64,000 bases of DNA. Source: Alphaproteobacteria bacterium. GTDB lineage: Bacteria > Pseudomonadota > Alphaproteobacteria > Reyranellales > Reyranellaceae. The translations under genes and the position numbers were made by a program. Below, in pieces: positions 57,111-64,000 of the stretch. Numbering within the stretch: position 1 is the first letter of the stretch; every line of letters begins with the position of its first letter. The notes beneath the pieces were generated by a model. It was not told where the DNA came from. It did no database searches and was given only the letters and a program-made list of their open reading frames with translations. The stretch covers positions 1 through 64,000 of the forward strand of contig JAFKFK010000014.1 of NCBI GenBank assembly GCA_017307275.1. Reading direction: 5' to 3'.

Positions 57111-57716
57111 ATGGAAGATCCCGACGACGTCCTGTTCTCGCCAGCGGTCAAGGCAGAGCAGACGCGTCTGGGATCACGTGCCCAATTCGAGGGCCGGACC
57201 TGGAACACGGAGATCACCGACGATCTCCGTCAGTTCCTCGGTGTCATCGACACCTTCTTCTTTGCAACGGCCAGTGCCGACGGCCGACCTTATATACAGC
57301 ACCGCGGCGGGCCACCGGGCTTCCTGAAGCCGATTGGCAGCCACACGCTGGCCTTCGCCGACTTTGCCGGCAATCGCCAGTACATCTCGCTGGGCCACCT
57401 GCGCGAAAACGACCGCGCCCACATCTTCATTCTGCACTTCGCGACCCAGCAGCGGGTGAAGTTGTGGGGCCGTGCGCGCATCGTCGAGGGCGACCTCGAA
57501 CTGATGGAGCGGCTCGTCGATCCGCGCTACCGGGCGCGTCCGGAACGGGCCATCGCCTTCACCATCGAAGCCTGGGACATCAATTGCCGCCAGCACATCA
57601 CGCCGCGCTACAGCGAGGCGGAGATCGCCCCGGCGGTCAACCAGCTCACCCAGCGGATCAAGGAGCTGGAAGAAGAAGTGGCGCGCCTCAAGGGGGAGAC
57701 GCCTTCGGGCTCCTAG
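57111..57716 (+). CDS. Pyridoxamine 5'-phosphate oxidase family protein
   Basis: 201 residues with AGGAG before the start. FFFATASADGRPYIQHRGG, LAFADFAGNRQYISLGHLRE and RVKLWGRARIVEGD show the split-barrel flavin/heme-binding fold. It lacks the PLP-site signature of true PdxH, so it is a general flavin-reductase-like or F420/heme protein. Its stop overlaps the thioesterase gene end by 4 bases, convergent. Confidence 0.82.
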   Translation: MEDPDDVLFSPAVKAEQTRLGSRAQFEGRTWNTEITDDLRQFLGVIDTFFFATASADGRPYIQHRGGPPGFLKPIGSHTLAFADFAGNRQYISLGHLRENDRAHIFILHFATQQRVKLWGRARIVEGDLELMERLVDPRYRARPERAIAFTIEAWDINCRQHITPRYSEAEIAPAVNQLTQRIKELEEEVARLKGETPSGS

Positions 57717-58213
57717 GCCTTCGCCTTGGGCCGCACGATCTTGATGGTAGAGGTCGAATGGACGATGAGCCGGCCCTTCTCGTCCTTCAGATCGCCGTCG
57801 AGGAAGCCCACCGAGCCGCCCCAGCGCATGACGCGGCCCTCGGCATAGACGATCCCTGGCCCCATTGCCTCGAAGAAGCTGATCTTGAGTTCGAGCGTGG
57901 GCACGGCGATGCCGAGCTTGCCCTTCACGATCGCCGCGTTGGCCATTGCGGTATCGACCATGCCGGTCAGGAAGCCGCCCTGGCAGATGCGGCCCTGCGA
58001 ATGGCAGAAGGCCGGCACGACCTCGAAGCGAAAGCGCGCATATCCGCGCGCCGAATCGATATCGAGCAGTTCGCCGTTCAGCGTCTTCAGCACTTCAGGT
58101 GGATTGGCGCGCAGGGCGGCGAGCATTTCCGAATCGTGCATGAGGTCCTTGGAGACATGCTGGAAGTCCGGATGGGCGGATGCGGCATGTGCCGAAGTGG
58201 GCGAAGCGGTCAT
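57713..58213 (-). CDS. PaaI family thioesterase
   Basis: 166 residues from ATG 58213, with a 4-base overlap to the MFS gene stop. Hotdog pattern: CHSQGRICQGGFLTGMVDTA is the HGG-like loop (the usual HxG is CQGG), with the helix acid Asp following, and TLELKISFFEAM. It should hydrolyse acyl- or aryl-CoA. It ends the marR-MFS-thioesterase operon, divergent from the oxygenase genes. Confidence 0.82.
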   Translation of the reverse strand: MTASPTSAHAASAHPDFQHVSKDLMHDSEMLAALRANPPEVLKTLNGELLDIDSARGYARFRFEVVPAFCHSQGRICQGGFLTGMVDTAMANAAIVKGKLGIAVPTLELKISFFEAMGPGIVYAEGRVMRWGGSVGFLDGDLKDEKGRLIVHSTSTIKIVRPKAKA

Positions 58214-59490
58214 GAACGTCGATACCTTGCAAAGAGGGCGTAAGCGGAAACGCCGGCCAGGACCAGCACGGCGAGATAGGTGAACAGGGCGCGATAGGCT
58301 TCTTCCGGCAGGGCGCCGGTCGTCGCGCCTGCCGGCATGAACGACTCCATGATGAAGCCGCTGACCGGCTGGGTGACGCCGACGCCGACGAACACCCAGA
58401 CATTGATGGAGGTGAGCGAGCGGCCGCGCAGGCGGTCGTCGAACAGCGAGCGGCCATGCTCGATGATCGCCGGGAAGAAATTGGAGAAGAGCCCGAAGAC
58501 CAGCAGCACGACGATCAGGGCCGTGGTCGGAATGTCCGACCAGAGCGCGAGGGTCGTCATGCAGGAGAAGCTGATCCCGGCAAAGATCAACACCACGGGT
58601 CGCGGCGTTCCCAAGCGTGAGGAGAGCCAACCCGCCACGAAGATTCCGATGGTCCCGAGCGCGGCCATGGCGAACAGGAGACGGCCGGTGACGGACGTCC
58701 CGAGCCCATGGATGTCGACCATGTAAAGGCCAAGCCACAGGCCCCGGATCGCGAAATTGGTCGAGTAACCGATCAGTGCGGCGCCGATCAGGCCGGGCAT
58801 CGCGGGATGGCGGAAGATTTCGCCCAGGCCGCGGATCACCGACAGGAGCGGCTCGGGCTCGCGCTTCGTCCAGTCCGATCCCGGCGGCGCGTCGCGCACG
58901 ACGAGCAGCATCAGTACCGCCGACACGAGGATGCCGAAAATGGCGACGGAGAACCCCCAGCGCCAGCCGATCCAGCCCATGATCCACACGAAGGGCTCGG
59001 TGGCGCTGAGATTACCGATATAGCCCAGCGACATCATGGTGGCGGAGAGTGTCGCGAAACGTTTCGGCGGCCACCACCGCGCGATCAGCACGATGGCTCC
59101 CATGAACACCGCCGACGTGCCGAGGCCCAGCACGAACATGCCGGCCGTCAGCTCCTCGAAGCTCTTGCCGAAGGCGAAGAGCATTCCGCCGACAACACCC
59201 AGAAACAAGGTGAGCGCCACCGTGAGCCGCGGCCCATATCGGTCGAACAGCACGCCCGACGGGATCTGCATCAGCGCGATGCCCCAGAAGAACGCACCGG
59301 TCACCGTACCGAGCTGTTCGGCGCTGAGGCCGATCTCGGTCCGCAACGTCGGTCCCAGCACGCCGGTCACCGACCGGGTGAACTGGCAGAGGATGAAACA
59401 GGCGGCGGCGATGGCGAACAACCAGACGCGGCCCCGCCGGACGGCGGGCGAATCGTAGTCGACGGAAGGAACGGTGGCTGAGGTACTCAC
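58210..59490 (-). CDS. MFS transporter
   Basis: 426 residues with about 12 membrane segments; G-x-L-x-D-R motif visible as GVLFDRYGPRLTVAL between TM2 and TM3. Starts with an Ser/Thr-rich N-terminus. Resembles sugar-acid/aromatic-acid uptake MFS such as the ACS group, but this is weak. It sits 10 bases downstream of marR, so co-regulated. Confidence 0.83.
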   Translation of the reverse strand: MSTSATVPSVDYDSPAVRRGRVWLFAIAAACFILCQFTRSVTGVLGPTLRTEIGLSAEQLGTVTGAFFWGIALMQIPSGVLFDRYGPRLTVALTLFLGVVGGMLFAFGKSFEELTAGMFVLGLGTSAVFMGAIVLIARWWPPKRFATLSATMMSLGYIGNLSATEPFVWIMGWIGWRWGFSVAIFGILVSAVLMLLVVRDAPPGSDWTKREPEPLLSVIRGLGEIFRHPAMPGLIGAALIGYSTNFAIRGLWLGLYMVDIHGLGTSVTGRLLFAMAALGTIGIFVAGWLSSRLGTPRPVVLIFAGISFSCMTTLALWSDIPTTALIVVLLVFGLFSNFFPAIIEHGRSLFDDRLRGRSLTSINVWVFVGVGVTQPVSGFIMESFMPAGATTGALPEEAYRALFTYLAVLVLAGVSAYALFARYRRS

Positions 59491-59500
59491 GGGGCGGCGA

Positions 59501-60004
59501 CTATAACGACGCTCTCACCTTCTCCAGCAACTCGATGAGTGTTCGCGTTTCGGCGGTCGAAAGAGCCGATGCGATGCGCGCCTCGTGCATGCGCACCAGC
59601 TTTGCGAAACGCGCCAGTGCTTTAACGCCGACGGGTGTCAGCGCCAGCGCATGCGTGCGGCCGTCGGTCGGCGAGCGACGCCGCACCAGGAGACCCCGCC
59701 CCTGCAGGCGATCGAGGATGGGCACCAGGGTCGAGCGGTCGATGCCGAGGGCGCGGGCCAGCGCCATCTGGCTGAGGCCGGCATTGCGATCGACCAGCAC
59801 GAGCAGCCCGAACTCCCCCGGGGTCAGCGCCTCGCCGGCCGCCGAGAAGGTGGCGGCGAAATCGGCAAAGACGGCAGACTGAGTACGGCGCAGCGCATAG
59901 CCCATCAGGGACGGCAGCAGGCCGCGATCTAGGTCCCGAGCTGCGGACTTGCCGTCAGCCTTCGTTCCGGGGTCTTCTGCGGGCTTGGTGGGTGGACGGC
60001 CCAT
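59501..60004 (-). CDS. MarR family transcriptional regulator
   Basis: 167 residues from ATG 60004. The winged helix-turn-helix is in SQMALARALGIDRSTLVPIL and the wing is GLLVRRRSPTDGRTHALALT. The N-terminal 25 residues are Lys/Asp/Pro-rich. It precedes the MFS and thioesterase genes on its strand and is divergent from the oxygenase operon, 57 bases away, a typical layout for a repressor of both sides. Confidence 0.9.
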   Translation of the reverse strand: MGRPPTKPAEDPGTKADGKSAARDLDRGLLPSLMGYALRRTQSAVFADFAATFSAAGEALTPGEFGLLVLVDRNAGLSQMALARALGIDRSTLVPILDRLQGRGLLVRRRSPTDGRTHALALTPVGVKALARFAKLVRMHEARIASALSTAETRTLIELLEKVRASL

Positions 60005-60025
60005 GTACGGAGTGGTAGACGGAGA

Positions 60026-60044
60026 TTGTTGGTAGATCAAACAA
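60026..60044. promoter_or_regulatory. Candidate MarR operator in the divergent gap
   Basis: TTGTT-N9-AACAA pseudo-dyad, with a second inverted pair GATCAA (60035-60040) and TTGATC (60054-60059) reaching the reductase start. Only 57 bp separate the two ATG codons, so any regulator bound here would block both promoters. Confidence 0.35.
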
Positions 60045-60061
60045 ATTATCGTGTTGATCCA

Positions 60062-61095
60062 ATGAGCTTCAAAGTACGCATCGCCCAGGCTGATCGAACG
60101 ATCGACGTCCCGACCGGCGCCACCATTCTGGAGGCGGCGCTCGACGCGGGCATCTCGTATCCATTCGGCTGCCAGTCCGGCAATTGCGGCGCCTGCAAGT
60201 CCCAACTCGTGAAGGGCGAAGTCACGATGGAGGGCTATTCGGAGTTCGCTCTTTCCGACGATGAGAAAGAGCGCGGGTTGATCCTCGCCTGTCGTGCCGT
60301 ACCCTGGGACGAGAGCGAGGTTGCCTGGCTCGAGGAGGACGACCTGATCGTCCATCCGCGCCGCCTGCTGTCCTGCAAGGTGGTCGGCCTCGACGACGCC
60401 ACGCACGACATCAAGCGCATTCGCCTCGAGATCGTCTCGGGCGGGCCGTTCGACTTCTCTGCGGGCCAGTTCGCCTCGGTCACCTTCGAGGGCTGCCCGC
60501 CGCGCGACTACTCGATGGCCAACGTGCCGGGCGATCCGATCCTGGAGTTCCACGTCCGCCGCACGGCCGGCGGCGCCACCAGCATGCATGTCGCGGAGAA
60601 ACTCGCGATTGGCGACAGCGTGCGAGTCGAAGGACCGTTCGGCCCCTCCTATCTGCGCGAAGCCCATCGGGGCCCGATCATCGCCGTGGCCGGCGGCTCG
60701 GGCATGGCGCCGATCAAGTCGGTGATCGAGCGGGCGCTGCAGAAGGAGCTGCCACAGCACATCTACTTCTATTTCGGCGTCCGCACCGAACGCGATCTCT
60801 ACCTGCACGACCATTTCGCGGCCTTGGCCGAGAAGCACAAGAACCTGCACTTCGTGCCGGTGCTGAGCGAAGCCGGCCCCTCGTCGGTGCGCAGCGGCCT
60901 GGTGCACGAAGCAGTCGCCGCCGACTTCGACGAGCTCGATGGCTGCAAGGCCTATCTCGCCGGCCCGCCGGTGATGGTCGAGGCGGCAATGCGATTGTTC
61001 GAAGAGCGCGGCATGCGCCGGATCGACATCCACGCCGACGCTTTCTACACCGCCGCGGAAATGGCAAGCGCCAACAAGAAGACGGGAGCGGAACT

Positions 61096-61099
<4 letters not shown>
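60062..61099 (+). CDS. 2Fe-2S ferredoxin/FAD/NAD(P)H oxygenase reductase
   Basis: 345 residues from ATG 60062 (an in-frame TTG at 60026 is an alternative; no strong ribosome site for either). N-terminal plant-type 2Fe-2S cluster with Cys37, Cys42, Cys45 and Cys77; then a FAD site PPRDYSMANVP; then NAD(P) motif AVAGGSGMAPIKSVIE; C-terminal DAFYTAAE. The ferredoxin-FAD-NAD order matches BenC, XylZ and DmpP-type reductases, not PaaE (ferredoxin at the C-terminus). It should feed electrons to the diiron oxygenase at 62040. Confidence 0.92.
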
Positions 61100-62028
<929 letters not shown>

Positions 62029-62039
62029 GGAGAGCGACC

Positions 62040-62747
62040 ATGACCCAGCCGATCATCGTCAAGACCGTCGAAGAGCTGAAGGACGCGCCCGAGGAGTATC
62101 GCGAAGCCGTGGCCAAGCTCGTGATCAGCCATGCCGTCAACGAGCTCTATGGCGCACAAGTGTTCGATGAACCCGCGATTGCCTACGCGCCGACGCCTTA
62201 CGCCAAGTGGCTGACCTGCCGCGTCGCCATGGAAGAATACGGCCACCACGTGCGCTTCAAGCAGCTCGGCGTGCAGATGGGCATTCCCGAGGAACGCATG
62301 ATCCCCGGCACCGGCAAGCGCCCGCTGTCGATCTTCGAGTTTCCGCTCAAGACCTGGGAGGAGTTCGTCGCCATCAAGCTGCTGGCCGACCTCGCCGAGA
62401 TCCTGCAGGTCGAGGACCTCCTGCACTGCACCTTCCATCCGCTGCGCAACCTGGCGCGCGCCACCATGCCGGAGGAGCGCTTCCATGCGCAGTTCGGCGA
62501 AGACTTCACCGCCGAGCTGATCAAGACGGCTGAAGGCAAAGCCACCTTGCAGGCCGCCATCGACGAGTACTTCCCCTACCTGCCGTCCTTCTTCGGCGGT
62601 TCCAAGTCGAGGAACAACGAAGTCTTCCGCAAGTGGAACATCAAGCAGCGCACCAATGACGAGATGCGCGCCGACTTCATGACACGCGCGACCGAGGTCG
62701 CAAGCAAATATGGCCTGACCCTGCCGGAGGTTCGGCAGGCCGCGTGA
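62040..62747 (+). CDS. PaaA-like diiron oxygenase (phenylacetic acid catabolic family)
   Basis: 235 residues. Carboxylate-bridged diiron ligands are visible: Glu35 in VNELYG, Glu66-x-x-His69 (EEYGHH), an acid in LAEILQVED around 120-126 and Glu146-x-x-His149 (PEERFH). The family contains PaaA, which epoxidises phenylacetyl-CoA, and BoxB. No PaaB, PaaC or PaaD genes are next to it. It lies 11 bases downstream of the SDR gene with GAGGAGAG before the start. Substrate unknown; CoA thioester likely from the family. Confidence 0.85.
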   Translation: MTQPIIVKTVEELKDAPEEYREAVAKLVISHAVNELYGAQVFDEPAIAYAPTPYAKWLTCRVAMEEYGHHVRFKQLGVQMGIPEERMIPGTGKRPLSIFEFPLKTWEEFVAIKLLADLAEILQVEDLLHCTFHPLRNLARATMPEERFHAQFGEDFTAELIKTAEGKATLQAAIDEYFPYLPSFFGGSKSRNNEVFRKWNIKQRTNDEMRADFMTRATEVASKYGLTLPEVRQAA

Positions 62748-63301
62748 AGCCCGCTGTCTCTCTGCCGCTTGCCCCGCTCGACCGGCTGAGAGCGGAGGCA
62801 CGCGTCGCGTCGTGGTTCGCAGCGCTCGGCGAGCCCTTGATCGAAGGCGATCTCGCCGACGCCGAAGCCTATGGAAATGCGCTCGACCTCGGCAGCCTCA
62901 CGACCCGGCTGGCGCACGATTGGCCCGAAGCAGAACACCTCCTGAAATCACGCGACTGGTTGCCCGCTTTGTGGGACCGAGAGGAAGCGTTGCGCCGTGC
63001 ACTGCTGGGGCGTGCCGAAACACTCCATGGCGAACGCGAGTTGTGGACCGCCCTCACCGAACTCACGACGGACATCGGCGAACTGGTGCATGGGAAGGCG
63101 GCCACGGCGGCCGCGCGGATGGGCGACGCCGCCAAGGCCTCCGTTCACGTCGCGGCGGGCGCTGCTTCGCAGGCTGTCTACCAACTCGCTGTCGCGCGGA
63201 TGGCCGGCGACACGGCGTCGCCATTCGAAAGCAAGTTCCGTCTCTTCGCCGCTGGCCGCTGGCCGTTGGGTATCATGGGCTCTACGCTGATCCTCTTCTG
63301 A
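62744..63301 (+). CDS. Protein of unknown function in the oxygenase operon
   Basis: 185 residues from GTG 62744, overlapping the oxygenase stop by 4 bases (GTGA). It is rich in Ala, Leu and Arg, with alpha-helical heptad-like parts (YQLAVARMAGD, HGKAATAAARMGDAAKASVH) and a short, apolar C-terminus ending RWPLGIMGSTLILF. No cysteine, no metal motif, no signal peptide. Its tight coupling suggests a partner or assembly protein for the diiron enzyme. I do not recognise the family. Confidence 0.65.
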   Translation: MKPAVSLPLAPLDRLRAEARVASWFAALGEPLIEGDLADAEAYGNALDLGSLTTRLAHDWPEAEHLLKSRDWLPALWDREEALRRALLGRAETLHGERELWTALTELTTDIGELVHGKAATAAARMGDAAKASVHVAAGAASQAVYQLAVARMAGDTASPFESKFRLFAAGRWPLGIMGSTLILF

Positions 63302-63313
63302 GAGGATCCAACC

Positions 63314-64000
63314 ATGTCTGTCTATGCTGCGCCGCCACGCACGACCGGCCGGCTGAAGCGCCCCTTCGGCTCTCTCTACTTTGAAGTCACCGGCAGCGGC
63401 CCTGCTCTGCTGTTCGCCCATGGGCTCGGCGGCAATCACCTGAGCTGGTGGCAGCAGGTCGCGCATTTCGCGCCGCGCTATACGTGTGTGACCTTCGCTC
63501 ATCGCGGCTTTGCCCCCTCCGATGCAATCGCGGACGGCCCCGACCCGGCGGACTATGCCGGCGACCTCGCTGCTCTCATCGAGCATCTGGAGTTTCCCGA
63601 TGTCCACCTGGTGGGACAGTCGATGGGCGGCTGGACGATGCTCGAATACGCACTAGCCCATCCCGACAAGGTGAAGGCGCTGATACTGAGTTCGACGTCC
63701 GGCACGCTCGACCGTCGCGGCAGCGATCCGTCGGGCGGCGGACAATACGATGCGTGGTTGAAGGACGCCGACGCAAAGATCGCCGACGGCATGGCCAAGG
63801 GCATTCATCCCGCCGTCGGCGCATCGGCCGCCGAACGCTGGCCGGCGCTTCACCTTCTCTATCGCAGCATCGACGAGATGGCCGGCACTCTCGACAAGGT
63901 AAAGCTGCGCGAAGGACTGCGCCGGACCGCCACACGCAAGCTCGCCGACCTGAAGACGTTTCGCGTACCGACCTTGCTGATCGCCGGCGGCGAAGACACG
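63314..64000 (+). CDS. Alpha/beta hydrolase, N-terminal part (cut by window end)
   Basis: 229 codons are visible; the gene continues past 64000. Blocks: ALLFAHGLGGNHLSWW oxyanion loop, VTFAHRGFAPSD, nucleophile Ser in VGQSMGGW and the start of the acid-loop LLIAGGEDT. The final His lies outside. It follows the unknown protein by 12 bases with GAGAGGATC. Probably opens an ester, lactone or C-C bond produced by the oxygenase pathway. Confidence 0.85.
   Translation, partial: MSVYAAPPRTTGRLKRPFGSLYFEVTGSGPALLFAHGLGGNHLSWWQQVAHFAPRYTCVTFAHRGFAPSDAIADGPDPADYAGDLAALIEHLEFPDVHLVGQSMGGWTMLEYALAHPDKVKALILSSTSGTLDRRGSDPSGGGQYDAWLKDADAKIADGMAKGIHPAVGASAAERWPALHLLYRSIDEMAGTLDKVKLREGLRRTATRKLADLKTFRVPTLLIAGGEDT

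What the first reader, a model, noticed from the sequence alone, without database searches (positions are those of the whole stretch)
57713..64000. Compact divergent gene cluster for an unassigned CoA-linked oxygenation pathway
Seen: marR-MFS-PaaI thioesterase on one strand, and reductase-SDR-PaaA-like diiron oxygenase-unknown-alpha/beta hydrolase on the other, with overlaps of 4 bases or gaps of 10-12 bases and one 57-bp divergent promoter. Known: PaaA- and BoxB-type diiron proteins oxidise aryl-CoA; MarR repressors often sense ring or CoA compounds; thioesterases release stalled CoA. Inference: a regulated uptake and oxygenation route with a substrate not covered by the standard paa or box operons.
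Basis: partly seen in the sequence, partly recalled or inferred. Interest (0 to 1): 0.7.

Follow-up and report, generated by a model that had tools for sequence, protein, structure and literature searches.

The report
CoA-linked oxygenase feeding gentisate pathway
A compact, repressor-controlled gene cluster in a Reyranella-like bacterium most likely attaches coenzyme A to an aromatic acid, hydroxylates the ring with a small stand-alone iron oxygenase and hands the product to the ordinary gentisate ring-cleavage pathway, a route I could not find described.

Summary
In detail: eight tightly packed genes on two divergent strands, with a 57-bp gap that holds a conserved palindrome. The oxygenase has the PaaA fold and all six diiron ligands, but it is not PaaA (87 bits against a cut-off of 280; no PaaC relative in the genome). 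The cluster recurs in 80 fetched loci. In 32 of 40 loci outside the Reyranella group a true gentisate 1,2-dioxygenase lies in the locus, nearly always directly after the oxygenase. Fumarylpyruvate-hydrolase-like, acyl-CoA synthetase, hotdog thioesterase, TRAP transporter and benzoate-CoA-ligase-family genes also recur. One non-alphaproteobacterial genome carries the whole set in one block. The window's genome has gentisate dioxygenase elsewhere and an acyl-CoA synthetase gene 3.5 kb past the last gene. Best reading: aromatic acid, aryl-CoA, diiron ring oxygenation, gentisyl-CoA, gentisate. The substrate (a hydroxybenzoate most likely) and the SDR step are unproven. The unknown gene belongs to an undescribed family found in about 20% of sampled Alphaproteobacteria, usually beside exonuclease III, so it is not clearly an oxygenase subunit. 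New variant of a known kind.

The parts
57713..58183 (-). hotdog-fold (PaaI-like) thioesterase, inferred to release gentisate from gentisyl-CoA
   Evidence: PF03061 E 9e-10, TIGR00369 above cut-off, PaaI TIGR02286 far below cut-off (29 of 119 bits); present in 38 of 40 Reyranella-type loci
58210..59490 (-). MFS transporter, probably aromatic-acid uptake; variable part of the cluster
   Evidence: PF07690 E 2.7e-42; found in 3 of 40 Reyranella-type and 1 of 40 other loci
59501..60004 (-). MarR-family regulator (start codon at 60004)
   Evidence: PF12802/PF01047; 38 of 40 Reyranella-type and 26 of 40 other loci; start read
60026..60044 (.). inverted repeat TTGTTGG-TAGAT-CAAACAA, candidate MarR operator
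   Evidence: consensus TTGTTTG-N5-CAAACAA; expected 0.02 in the window at up to 2 mismatches; only site in the genome at up to 1 mismatch; exact copy at the same place in most Reyranella-type loci
60062..61099 (+). NADH-dependent [2Fe-2S]/FAD reductase, ferredoxin domain N-terminal
   Evidence: PF00111-PF00970-PF00175 in that order; BenC, MmoC and cytochrome-P450-reductase (5ogx) type relatives; Cys37, 42, 45, 77 conserved
61096..62028 (+). SDR dehydrogenase, nearest to (3R)-hydroxyacyl-CoA dehydrogenases
   Evidence: PF00106; best PDB relative 2et6, 202 bits against 144 for the next; N121, S160, Y173, K177 conserved
62040..62747 (+). stand-alone PaaA-fold diiron oxygenase
   Evidence: PF05138 E 9e-29; AlphaFold pLDDT 95, PDB matches PaaA (TMq 0.89) and SSO1313; ligand positions E35, E66, H69, D117, E146, H149 invariant in 41 sequences
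62744..63301 (+). small, mostly helical protein of an undescribed family; role unknown
   Evidence: no Pfam or NCBIfam match; pLDDT 94 model; 79 of 385 class genomes
63314..64000 (+). alpha/beta hydrolase (continues to contig position 64150); accessory, role unknown
   Evidence: PF00561 E 5e-24; nearest NCBIfam model PcaD, 99 of 256 bits; mainly in Reyranella-type loci

Best explanation
The cluster is the entry part of a CoA-thioester route into gentisate. Inferred steps: (1) an aromatic acid, most likely a hydroxybenzoate, enters through the MFS carrier (TRAP in many relatives); (2) it is joined to CoA by the NDP-forming acyl-CoA synthetase encoded at contig position 67628-69115 (with an ATP-grasp partner encoded elsewhere) or by a benzoate-CoA-ligase-type enzyme; (3) the stand-alone PaaA-type diiron protein, reduced by the [2Fe-2S]/FAD reductase, oxygenates the ring of the aryl-CoA; (4) the SDR, of the (3R)-hydroxyacyl-CoA-dehydrogenase type, oxidises a ring hydroxyl beta to the thioester in a non-aromatic intermediate so that the ring becomes aromatic again; (5) the hotdog thioesterase releases gentisate; (6) gentisate 1,2-dioxygenase, isomerase and fumarylpyruvate hydrolase, encoded elsewhere in this genome but next to the oxygenase in relatives, open the ring. 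A MarR protein represses the cluster through the palindrome in the 57-bp gap. Shown by sequence: gene content, intact catalytic residues, predicted fold, conserved synteny with gentisate genes, conserved palindrome. Inferred: every chemical step, the substrate, the repressor's action and ligand.
For: Gentisate dioxygenase (TIGR02272, 554 bits against cut-off 442) lies in 32 of 40 non-Reyranella loci, in nearly all directly after the oxygenase. A non-alphaproteobacterial genome (G042, locus L110) holds red-SDR-PaaA-GDO-unknown-FAH-4HBT thioesterase-maleylacetoacetate/maleylpyruvate isomerase-fused acyl-CoA synthetase in one block with a divergent MarR. The window's genome has one gentisate dioxygenase (553 bits; C10), a FAH (58%) and an isomerase (54%), with no aromatic hydroxylase evident beside the dioxygenase. 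The acyl-CoA synthetase gene lies in 25 of 40 non-Reyranella loci, and in 8 Reyranella-type loci it carries its own copy of the palindrome. Benzoate-CoA-ligase-family genes sit beside the cluster in L078 (499 bits, above cut-off), L045, L050 and L074. The oxygenase has PaaA's fold and all six ligand positions; the SDR is nearest to acyl-CoA dehydrogenases of the (3R)-hydroxy type; hotdog thioesterases recur in both arrangements.
Against: No substrate is shown. In Reyranella the gentisate genes are not beside the cluster. The window's acyl-CoA synthetase gene encodes only the CoA-binding and ligase part, without ATP-grasp, and is not preceded by the palindrome in this genome. Hydroxylation of a hydroxybenzoyl-CoA would not obviously need an SDR. 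Eight non-Reyranella loci show no gentisate dioxygenase nearby, some because the contig ends.
Confidence: 0.68

Rival explanations
1. A box- or paa-like route: the oxygenase makes an aryl-CoA epoxide that is opened by hydrolysis (alpha/beta hydrolase) and finished by beta-oxidation, with gentisate genes only chance neighbours.
For: PaaA and BoxB fold and ligands; an alpha/beta hydrolase follows in Reyranella-type loci.
Against: No PaaB, PaaC, PaaG, PaaZ or BoxC partner is seen in the cluster; a separate BoxB/BoxC pair exists in the same genome; gentisate dioxygenase, not beta-oxidation genes, is conserved; the hydrolase is missing in most non-Reyranella loci.
Confidence: 0.1
2. The substrate is an alicyclic or partly reduced ring acid (as CoA ester); the oxygenase and the hydroxyacyl-CoA-type SDR together turn it into the aromatic gentisyl-CoA.
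For: The SDR is nearest to (3R)-hydroxyacyl-CoA dehydrogenases and is present in 38 of 40 non-Reyranella loci; an SDR is not needed for simple hydroxylation.
Against: CoA ligases beside the cluster in L078, L045 and L074 are of the benzoate or 3-hydroxybenzoate ligase family; no acyl-CoA dehydrogenase recurs in the operon.
Confidence: 0.15
3. The cluster removes or salvages a metabolite (detoxification or secondary metabolism) rather than supporting growth.
For: In Reyranella the ring-opening genes are scattered over the genome.
Against: Transporters, CoA synthetase and complete ring-opening sets in relatives.
Confidence: 0.05

Closest known systems
PaaA of 1,2-phenylacetyl-CoA epoxidase (PaaABCE; 3pw8, 4iit)
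   Same: fold (TMq 0.89), six diiron ligand positions, CoA-linked aromatic context
   Different: about 25% identity, 87 bits against NCBIfam cut-off 280, no PaaC relative in the genome, reductase of another domain order
SSO1313 of Sulfolobus (4mud)
   Same: small PaaA-like protein of nearly the same length (TMt 0.88)
   Different: 23% identity; no function found in the held papers
BoxB, benzoyl-CoA 2,3-epoxidase
   Same: diiron protein acting on aryl-CoA; weak profile match (24.5 bits)
   Different: twice the size; a true BoxB is elsewhere in this genome (876 bits)
Salicylyl-CoA 5-hydroxylase route (sdgC)
   Same: aryl-CoA to gentisyl-CoA to gentisate logic (sdgC as described in PMC13215587)
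   Different: sdgC is a flavin monooxygenase (own knowledge); here the candidate is a diiron oxygenase with its own reductase and an SDR
Gentisate ring-cleavage pathway (gentisate dioxygenase, isomerase, fumarylpyruvate hydrolase)
   Same: members in the operons of relatives and in this genome
   Different: the usual entry enzymes are flavin or Rieske hydroxylases acting on free acids (own knowledge)

Membership tests
PaaA (TIGR02156 equivalog) | score above curated cut-off of 280 bits | tested here: not met
   87.5 bits
PF05138 superfamily (PaaA_PaaC) | PaaA_PaaC domain and fold | tested here: met
   100.9 bits against cut-off 28.5; Foldseek E 8e-11 to PaaA
PaaA / BoxB-type diiron oxygenases | diiron ligands E, ExxH, D, ExxH | tested here: met
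   E35, E66, H69, D117, E146, H149 align with the E. coli PaaA positions and are invariant in 41 sequences; metal binding itself not tested
PaaABCE epoxidase | PaaC-type second subunit in the genome | tested here: not met
   the only other PF05138 match in the genome is a sub-cut-off hit inside BoxB
PaaE-type reductase | FAD/NAD domains first, ferredoxin domain last | tested here: not met
   ferredoxin domain at residues 7-81, before FAD and NAD domains; PaaE order from own knowledge
BoxB (TIGR03225) | length near 470 aa and score above 499 bits | tested here: not met
   235 aa; the genome's only BoxB hit is at C30
Gentisate pathway, entry route | conserved gene neighbourhood with a true gentisate 1,2-dioxygenase | tested here: met
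   32 of 40 non-Reyranella loci; above equivalog cut-off; not adjacent in the window's own genome
Gentisate pathway, entry route | enzyme product is gentisyl-CoA or gentisate | not testable with these tools
   needs biochemistry
Salicylyl-CoA 5-hydroxylase (sdgC) | flavin-dependent hydroxylase in the cluster | tested here: not met
   Pfam scan of every cluster protein shows no flavin hydroxylase domain
RhsI2-type immunity protein (for the unknown gene) | shared fold | tested here: inconclusive
   Z 11.4 over 150 residues, TMq 0.44, 12% identity, mostly helical

The most novel reading that the evidence does not exclude
A previously undescribed aerobic hybrid route in which a single-type PaaA-fold diiron oxygenase, working with an acyl-CoA-type SDR, converts a (hydroxy)benzoyl-CoA into gentisyl-CoA: a third class of diiron aryl-CoA oxygenase beside PaaABCE and BoxAB, and one that ends in dioxygenase ring cleavage instead of hydrolytic cleavage.
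Probability: 0.5. Interest if true: 0.68.

Novelty: new variant of a known kind. Interest (0 to 1): 0.52.

Why it matters
Aerobic CoA-linked aromatic breakdown is known mainly from paa and box, which avoid ring-cleaving dioxygenases. A conserved operon that couples a small diiron aryl-CoA oxygenase to gentisate cleavage would join the two strategies. It would offer a simpler model for PaaA chemistry and assign function to genes now likely labelled 'phenylacetic acid catabolic protein' in many Alphaproteobacteria.

Tried and rejected
Rejected: that the oxygenase is PaaA or BoxB. Rejected: that it lacks diiron ligands. Rejected as a working assumption: that the unknown gene is a subunit special to this enzyme; no PaaB or PaaC match was listed for its model and its family occurs without the oxygenase, beside exonuclease III. 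The lack of other fold matches is not taken as evidence of a new fold. Led nowhere: plasmid relatives in rhizobia, haloarchaea and Alteromonas (ordinary paa operons or unrelated contexts); the palindrome in front of the window's own acyl-CoA synthetase or gentisate dioxygenase; a 4-hydroxybenzoate 3-hydroxylase above cut-off in the three test genomes (none), which is only weak support for a hydroxybenzoate substrate. Papers: no description of a PaaA-like plus gentisate cluster found in the held library; most subscription papers are not held, and the Haloarcula 4-hydroxybenzoate paper could not be read.
Full report
Observation. The MarR gene starts at 60004 and the reductase at 60062, so the divergent gap is 57 bp. 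The window is part of contig C7 of a 5.3-Mb genome whose nearest relatives are Reyranella (98 and 96% identity of the oxygenase). Past 64000 the alpha/beta hydrolase ends at 64150. It is followed by a D-cysteate sulfo-lyase-type gene, an M81 peptidase-type gene, a gene that looks like pirin on the other strand (named by eye) and, at 67628-69115, an NDP-forming acyl-CoA synthetase alpha-type gene.

The oxygenase. It matches Pfam PF05138 (100.9 bits) but not the PaaA equivalog model (87.5 against 280 bits). Its AlphaFold model (pLDDT 95) is closest to PaaA (TMq 0.89) and to the Sulfolobus protein SSO1313 (TMt 0.88), with BoxB further off. The six positions E35, E66, H69, D117, E146 and H149 align with E42, E72, H75, D126, E155 and H158 of E. 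coli PaaA (ligand identities from own knowledge; alignment) and are invariant in 41 sequences. The genome has no other PF05138 match except a sub-cut-off hit inside BoxB, so no PaaC.

The other enzymes. The reductase has its ferredoxin domain first, as in BenC and MmoC, unlike PaaE. The SDR keeps N121, S160, Y173 and K177, and its best solved relative is a (3R)-hydroxyacyl-CoA dehydrogenase, 202 against 144 bits for the next. This fits a CoA-thioester substrate.

Synteny. Eighty loci were fetched. Forty are Reyranella-type; among them MarR, reductase, unknown and thioesterase are each in 38, and the acyl-CoA synthetase in 26. Forty are other, mostly Rhodospirillales-like, genomes. Among these a gentisate 1,2-dioxygenase lies in 32, in nearly all directly after the oxygenase; the acyl-CoA synthetase in 25, FAH in 17, TRAP transporter in about 11, 4HBT thioesterase in 10. 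The dioxygenase exceeds the curated cut-off for gentisate 1,2-dioxygenase (554 against 442 bits) and the isomerase exceeds that of maiA. Benzoate-CoA-ligase-family genes stand beside the cluster in L078 (above cut-off), L045, L050 and L074. A non-alphaproteobacterial genome (G042, same phylum; oxygenase E 5.9e-121) carries MarR / red-SDR-PaaA-GDO-unknown-FAH-4HBT-isomerase-fused acyl-CoA synthetase with ATP-grasp in one block. This single locus contains a candidate for every step from free acid to fumarate and pyruvate.

Distribution. The oxygenase was found in 3 of 398 genomes drawn over the phylum. Of the 75 loci fetched around the unknown gene in a draw of 385 genomes of the class, 17 hold the oxygenase.

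The window's own genome. It has one gentisate dioxygenase (C10, 62% to the operon-borne one, 553 bits), a FAH (C24, 58%) and an isomerase (C17, 54%). It also has BoxC, BoxB and a benzoate-CoA-ligase-type gene (C30), so plain benzoyl-CoA already has its own route. No 4-hydroxybenzoate 3-hydroxylase above cut-off was found. This favours a hydroxybenzoate substrate, but weakly.

Regulation. The gap holds TTGTTGG-TAGAT-CAAACAA at 60026-60044 (expected 0.02 in the window at up to two mismatches; unique in the genome at up to one mismatch). The exact palindrome is at the same place in most Reyranella-type loci. Eight Reyranella-type loci have a second copy (up to one mismatch, with another spacer) just before the acyl-CoA synthetase gene, which ties that gene to the same regulator. 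The window's genome lacks that second copy. Binding by MarR is inferred.

The unknown gene. No library knows it. Its model is confident (pLDDT 94). The only fold match that stands out is the Rhs immunity protein RhsI2 (Z 11.4, TMq 0.44, 12% identity), which by the tool's own note may be only a common helical arrangement. The family is present in 79 of 385 sampled genomes of the class. In 75 fetched loci it is near exonuclease III in 57, near gentisate dioxygenase in 24 and near the oxygenase in 17. It is therefore a widespread undescribed protein that also rides with this operon, even outside the class (L110). Its role is open.

Mechanism and limits. The commitment is aromatic acid to aryl-CoA to gentisyl-CoA to gentisate. 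Shown by sequence: components, intact residues, synteny, palindrome. Inferred: chemistry, substrate, order of SDR and thioesterase, repressor action and ligand. The route is not filed as paa or box because defining features were tested and not met. The held literature contains a gentisyl-CoA route through a hydroxylase, sdgC (PMC13215587), and mentions 4-hydroxybenzoate to gentisate in Bacillus and Haloarcula (PMC10815724), but no such diiron cluster was found.

Noticed in passing
window 62744-63301; loci L142-L216: The 185-aa unknown protein belongs to an undescribed family present in about 20% of sampled Alphaproteobacteria, usually close to exonuclease III; in two read loci it follows ftsK-like and lolA-like genes.
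   Followed up: partly
L165, L167, L171: Clusters MarR-reductase-gentisate dioxygenase-unknown-FAH-exonuclease III without SDR or PaaA-like gene in the fetched stretch: another variant whose oxygenase is not seen.
   Followed up: no
model of window 62744-63301: Best fold match is the Rhs toxin immunity protein RhsI2 (8cm0_BBB, Z 11.4), well above the next unrelated rows.
   Followed up: no
upstream of the acyl-CoA synthetase gene in L011, L019, L021, L022, L024, L025, L037, L038: A second palindrome TTGTTTG-TGCTG-CAAACAA (up to one mismatch), absent at that place in the window's genome.
   Followed up: partly
contig C7:67628-69115 (L082 7628-9115): NDP-forming acyl-CoA synthetase without the ATP-grasp part; ATP-grasp domains exist elsewhere in the genome (C18, C62, C13), so its activity would need a partner.
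   Followed up: partly
genome contig C30, about 74269-80076 (L111): BoxC, BoxB and a benzoate-CoA-ligase-type gene for benzoate breakdown in the same genome.
   Followed up: yes
contig C7:64167-65168: D-cysteate sulfo-lyase CuyA-type gene above its NCBIfam cut-off (499 against 450 bits) right after the cluster.
   Followed up: no
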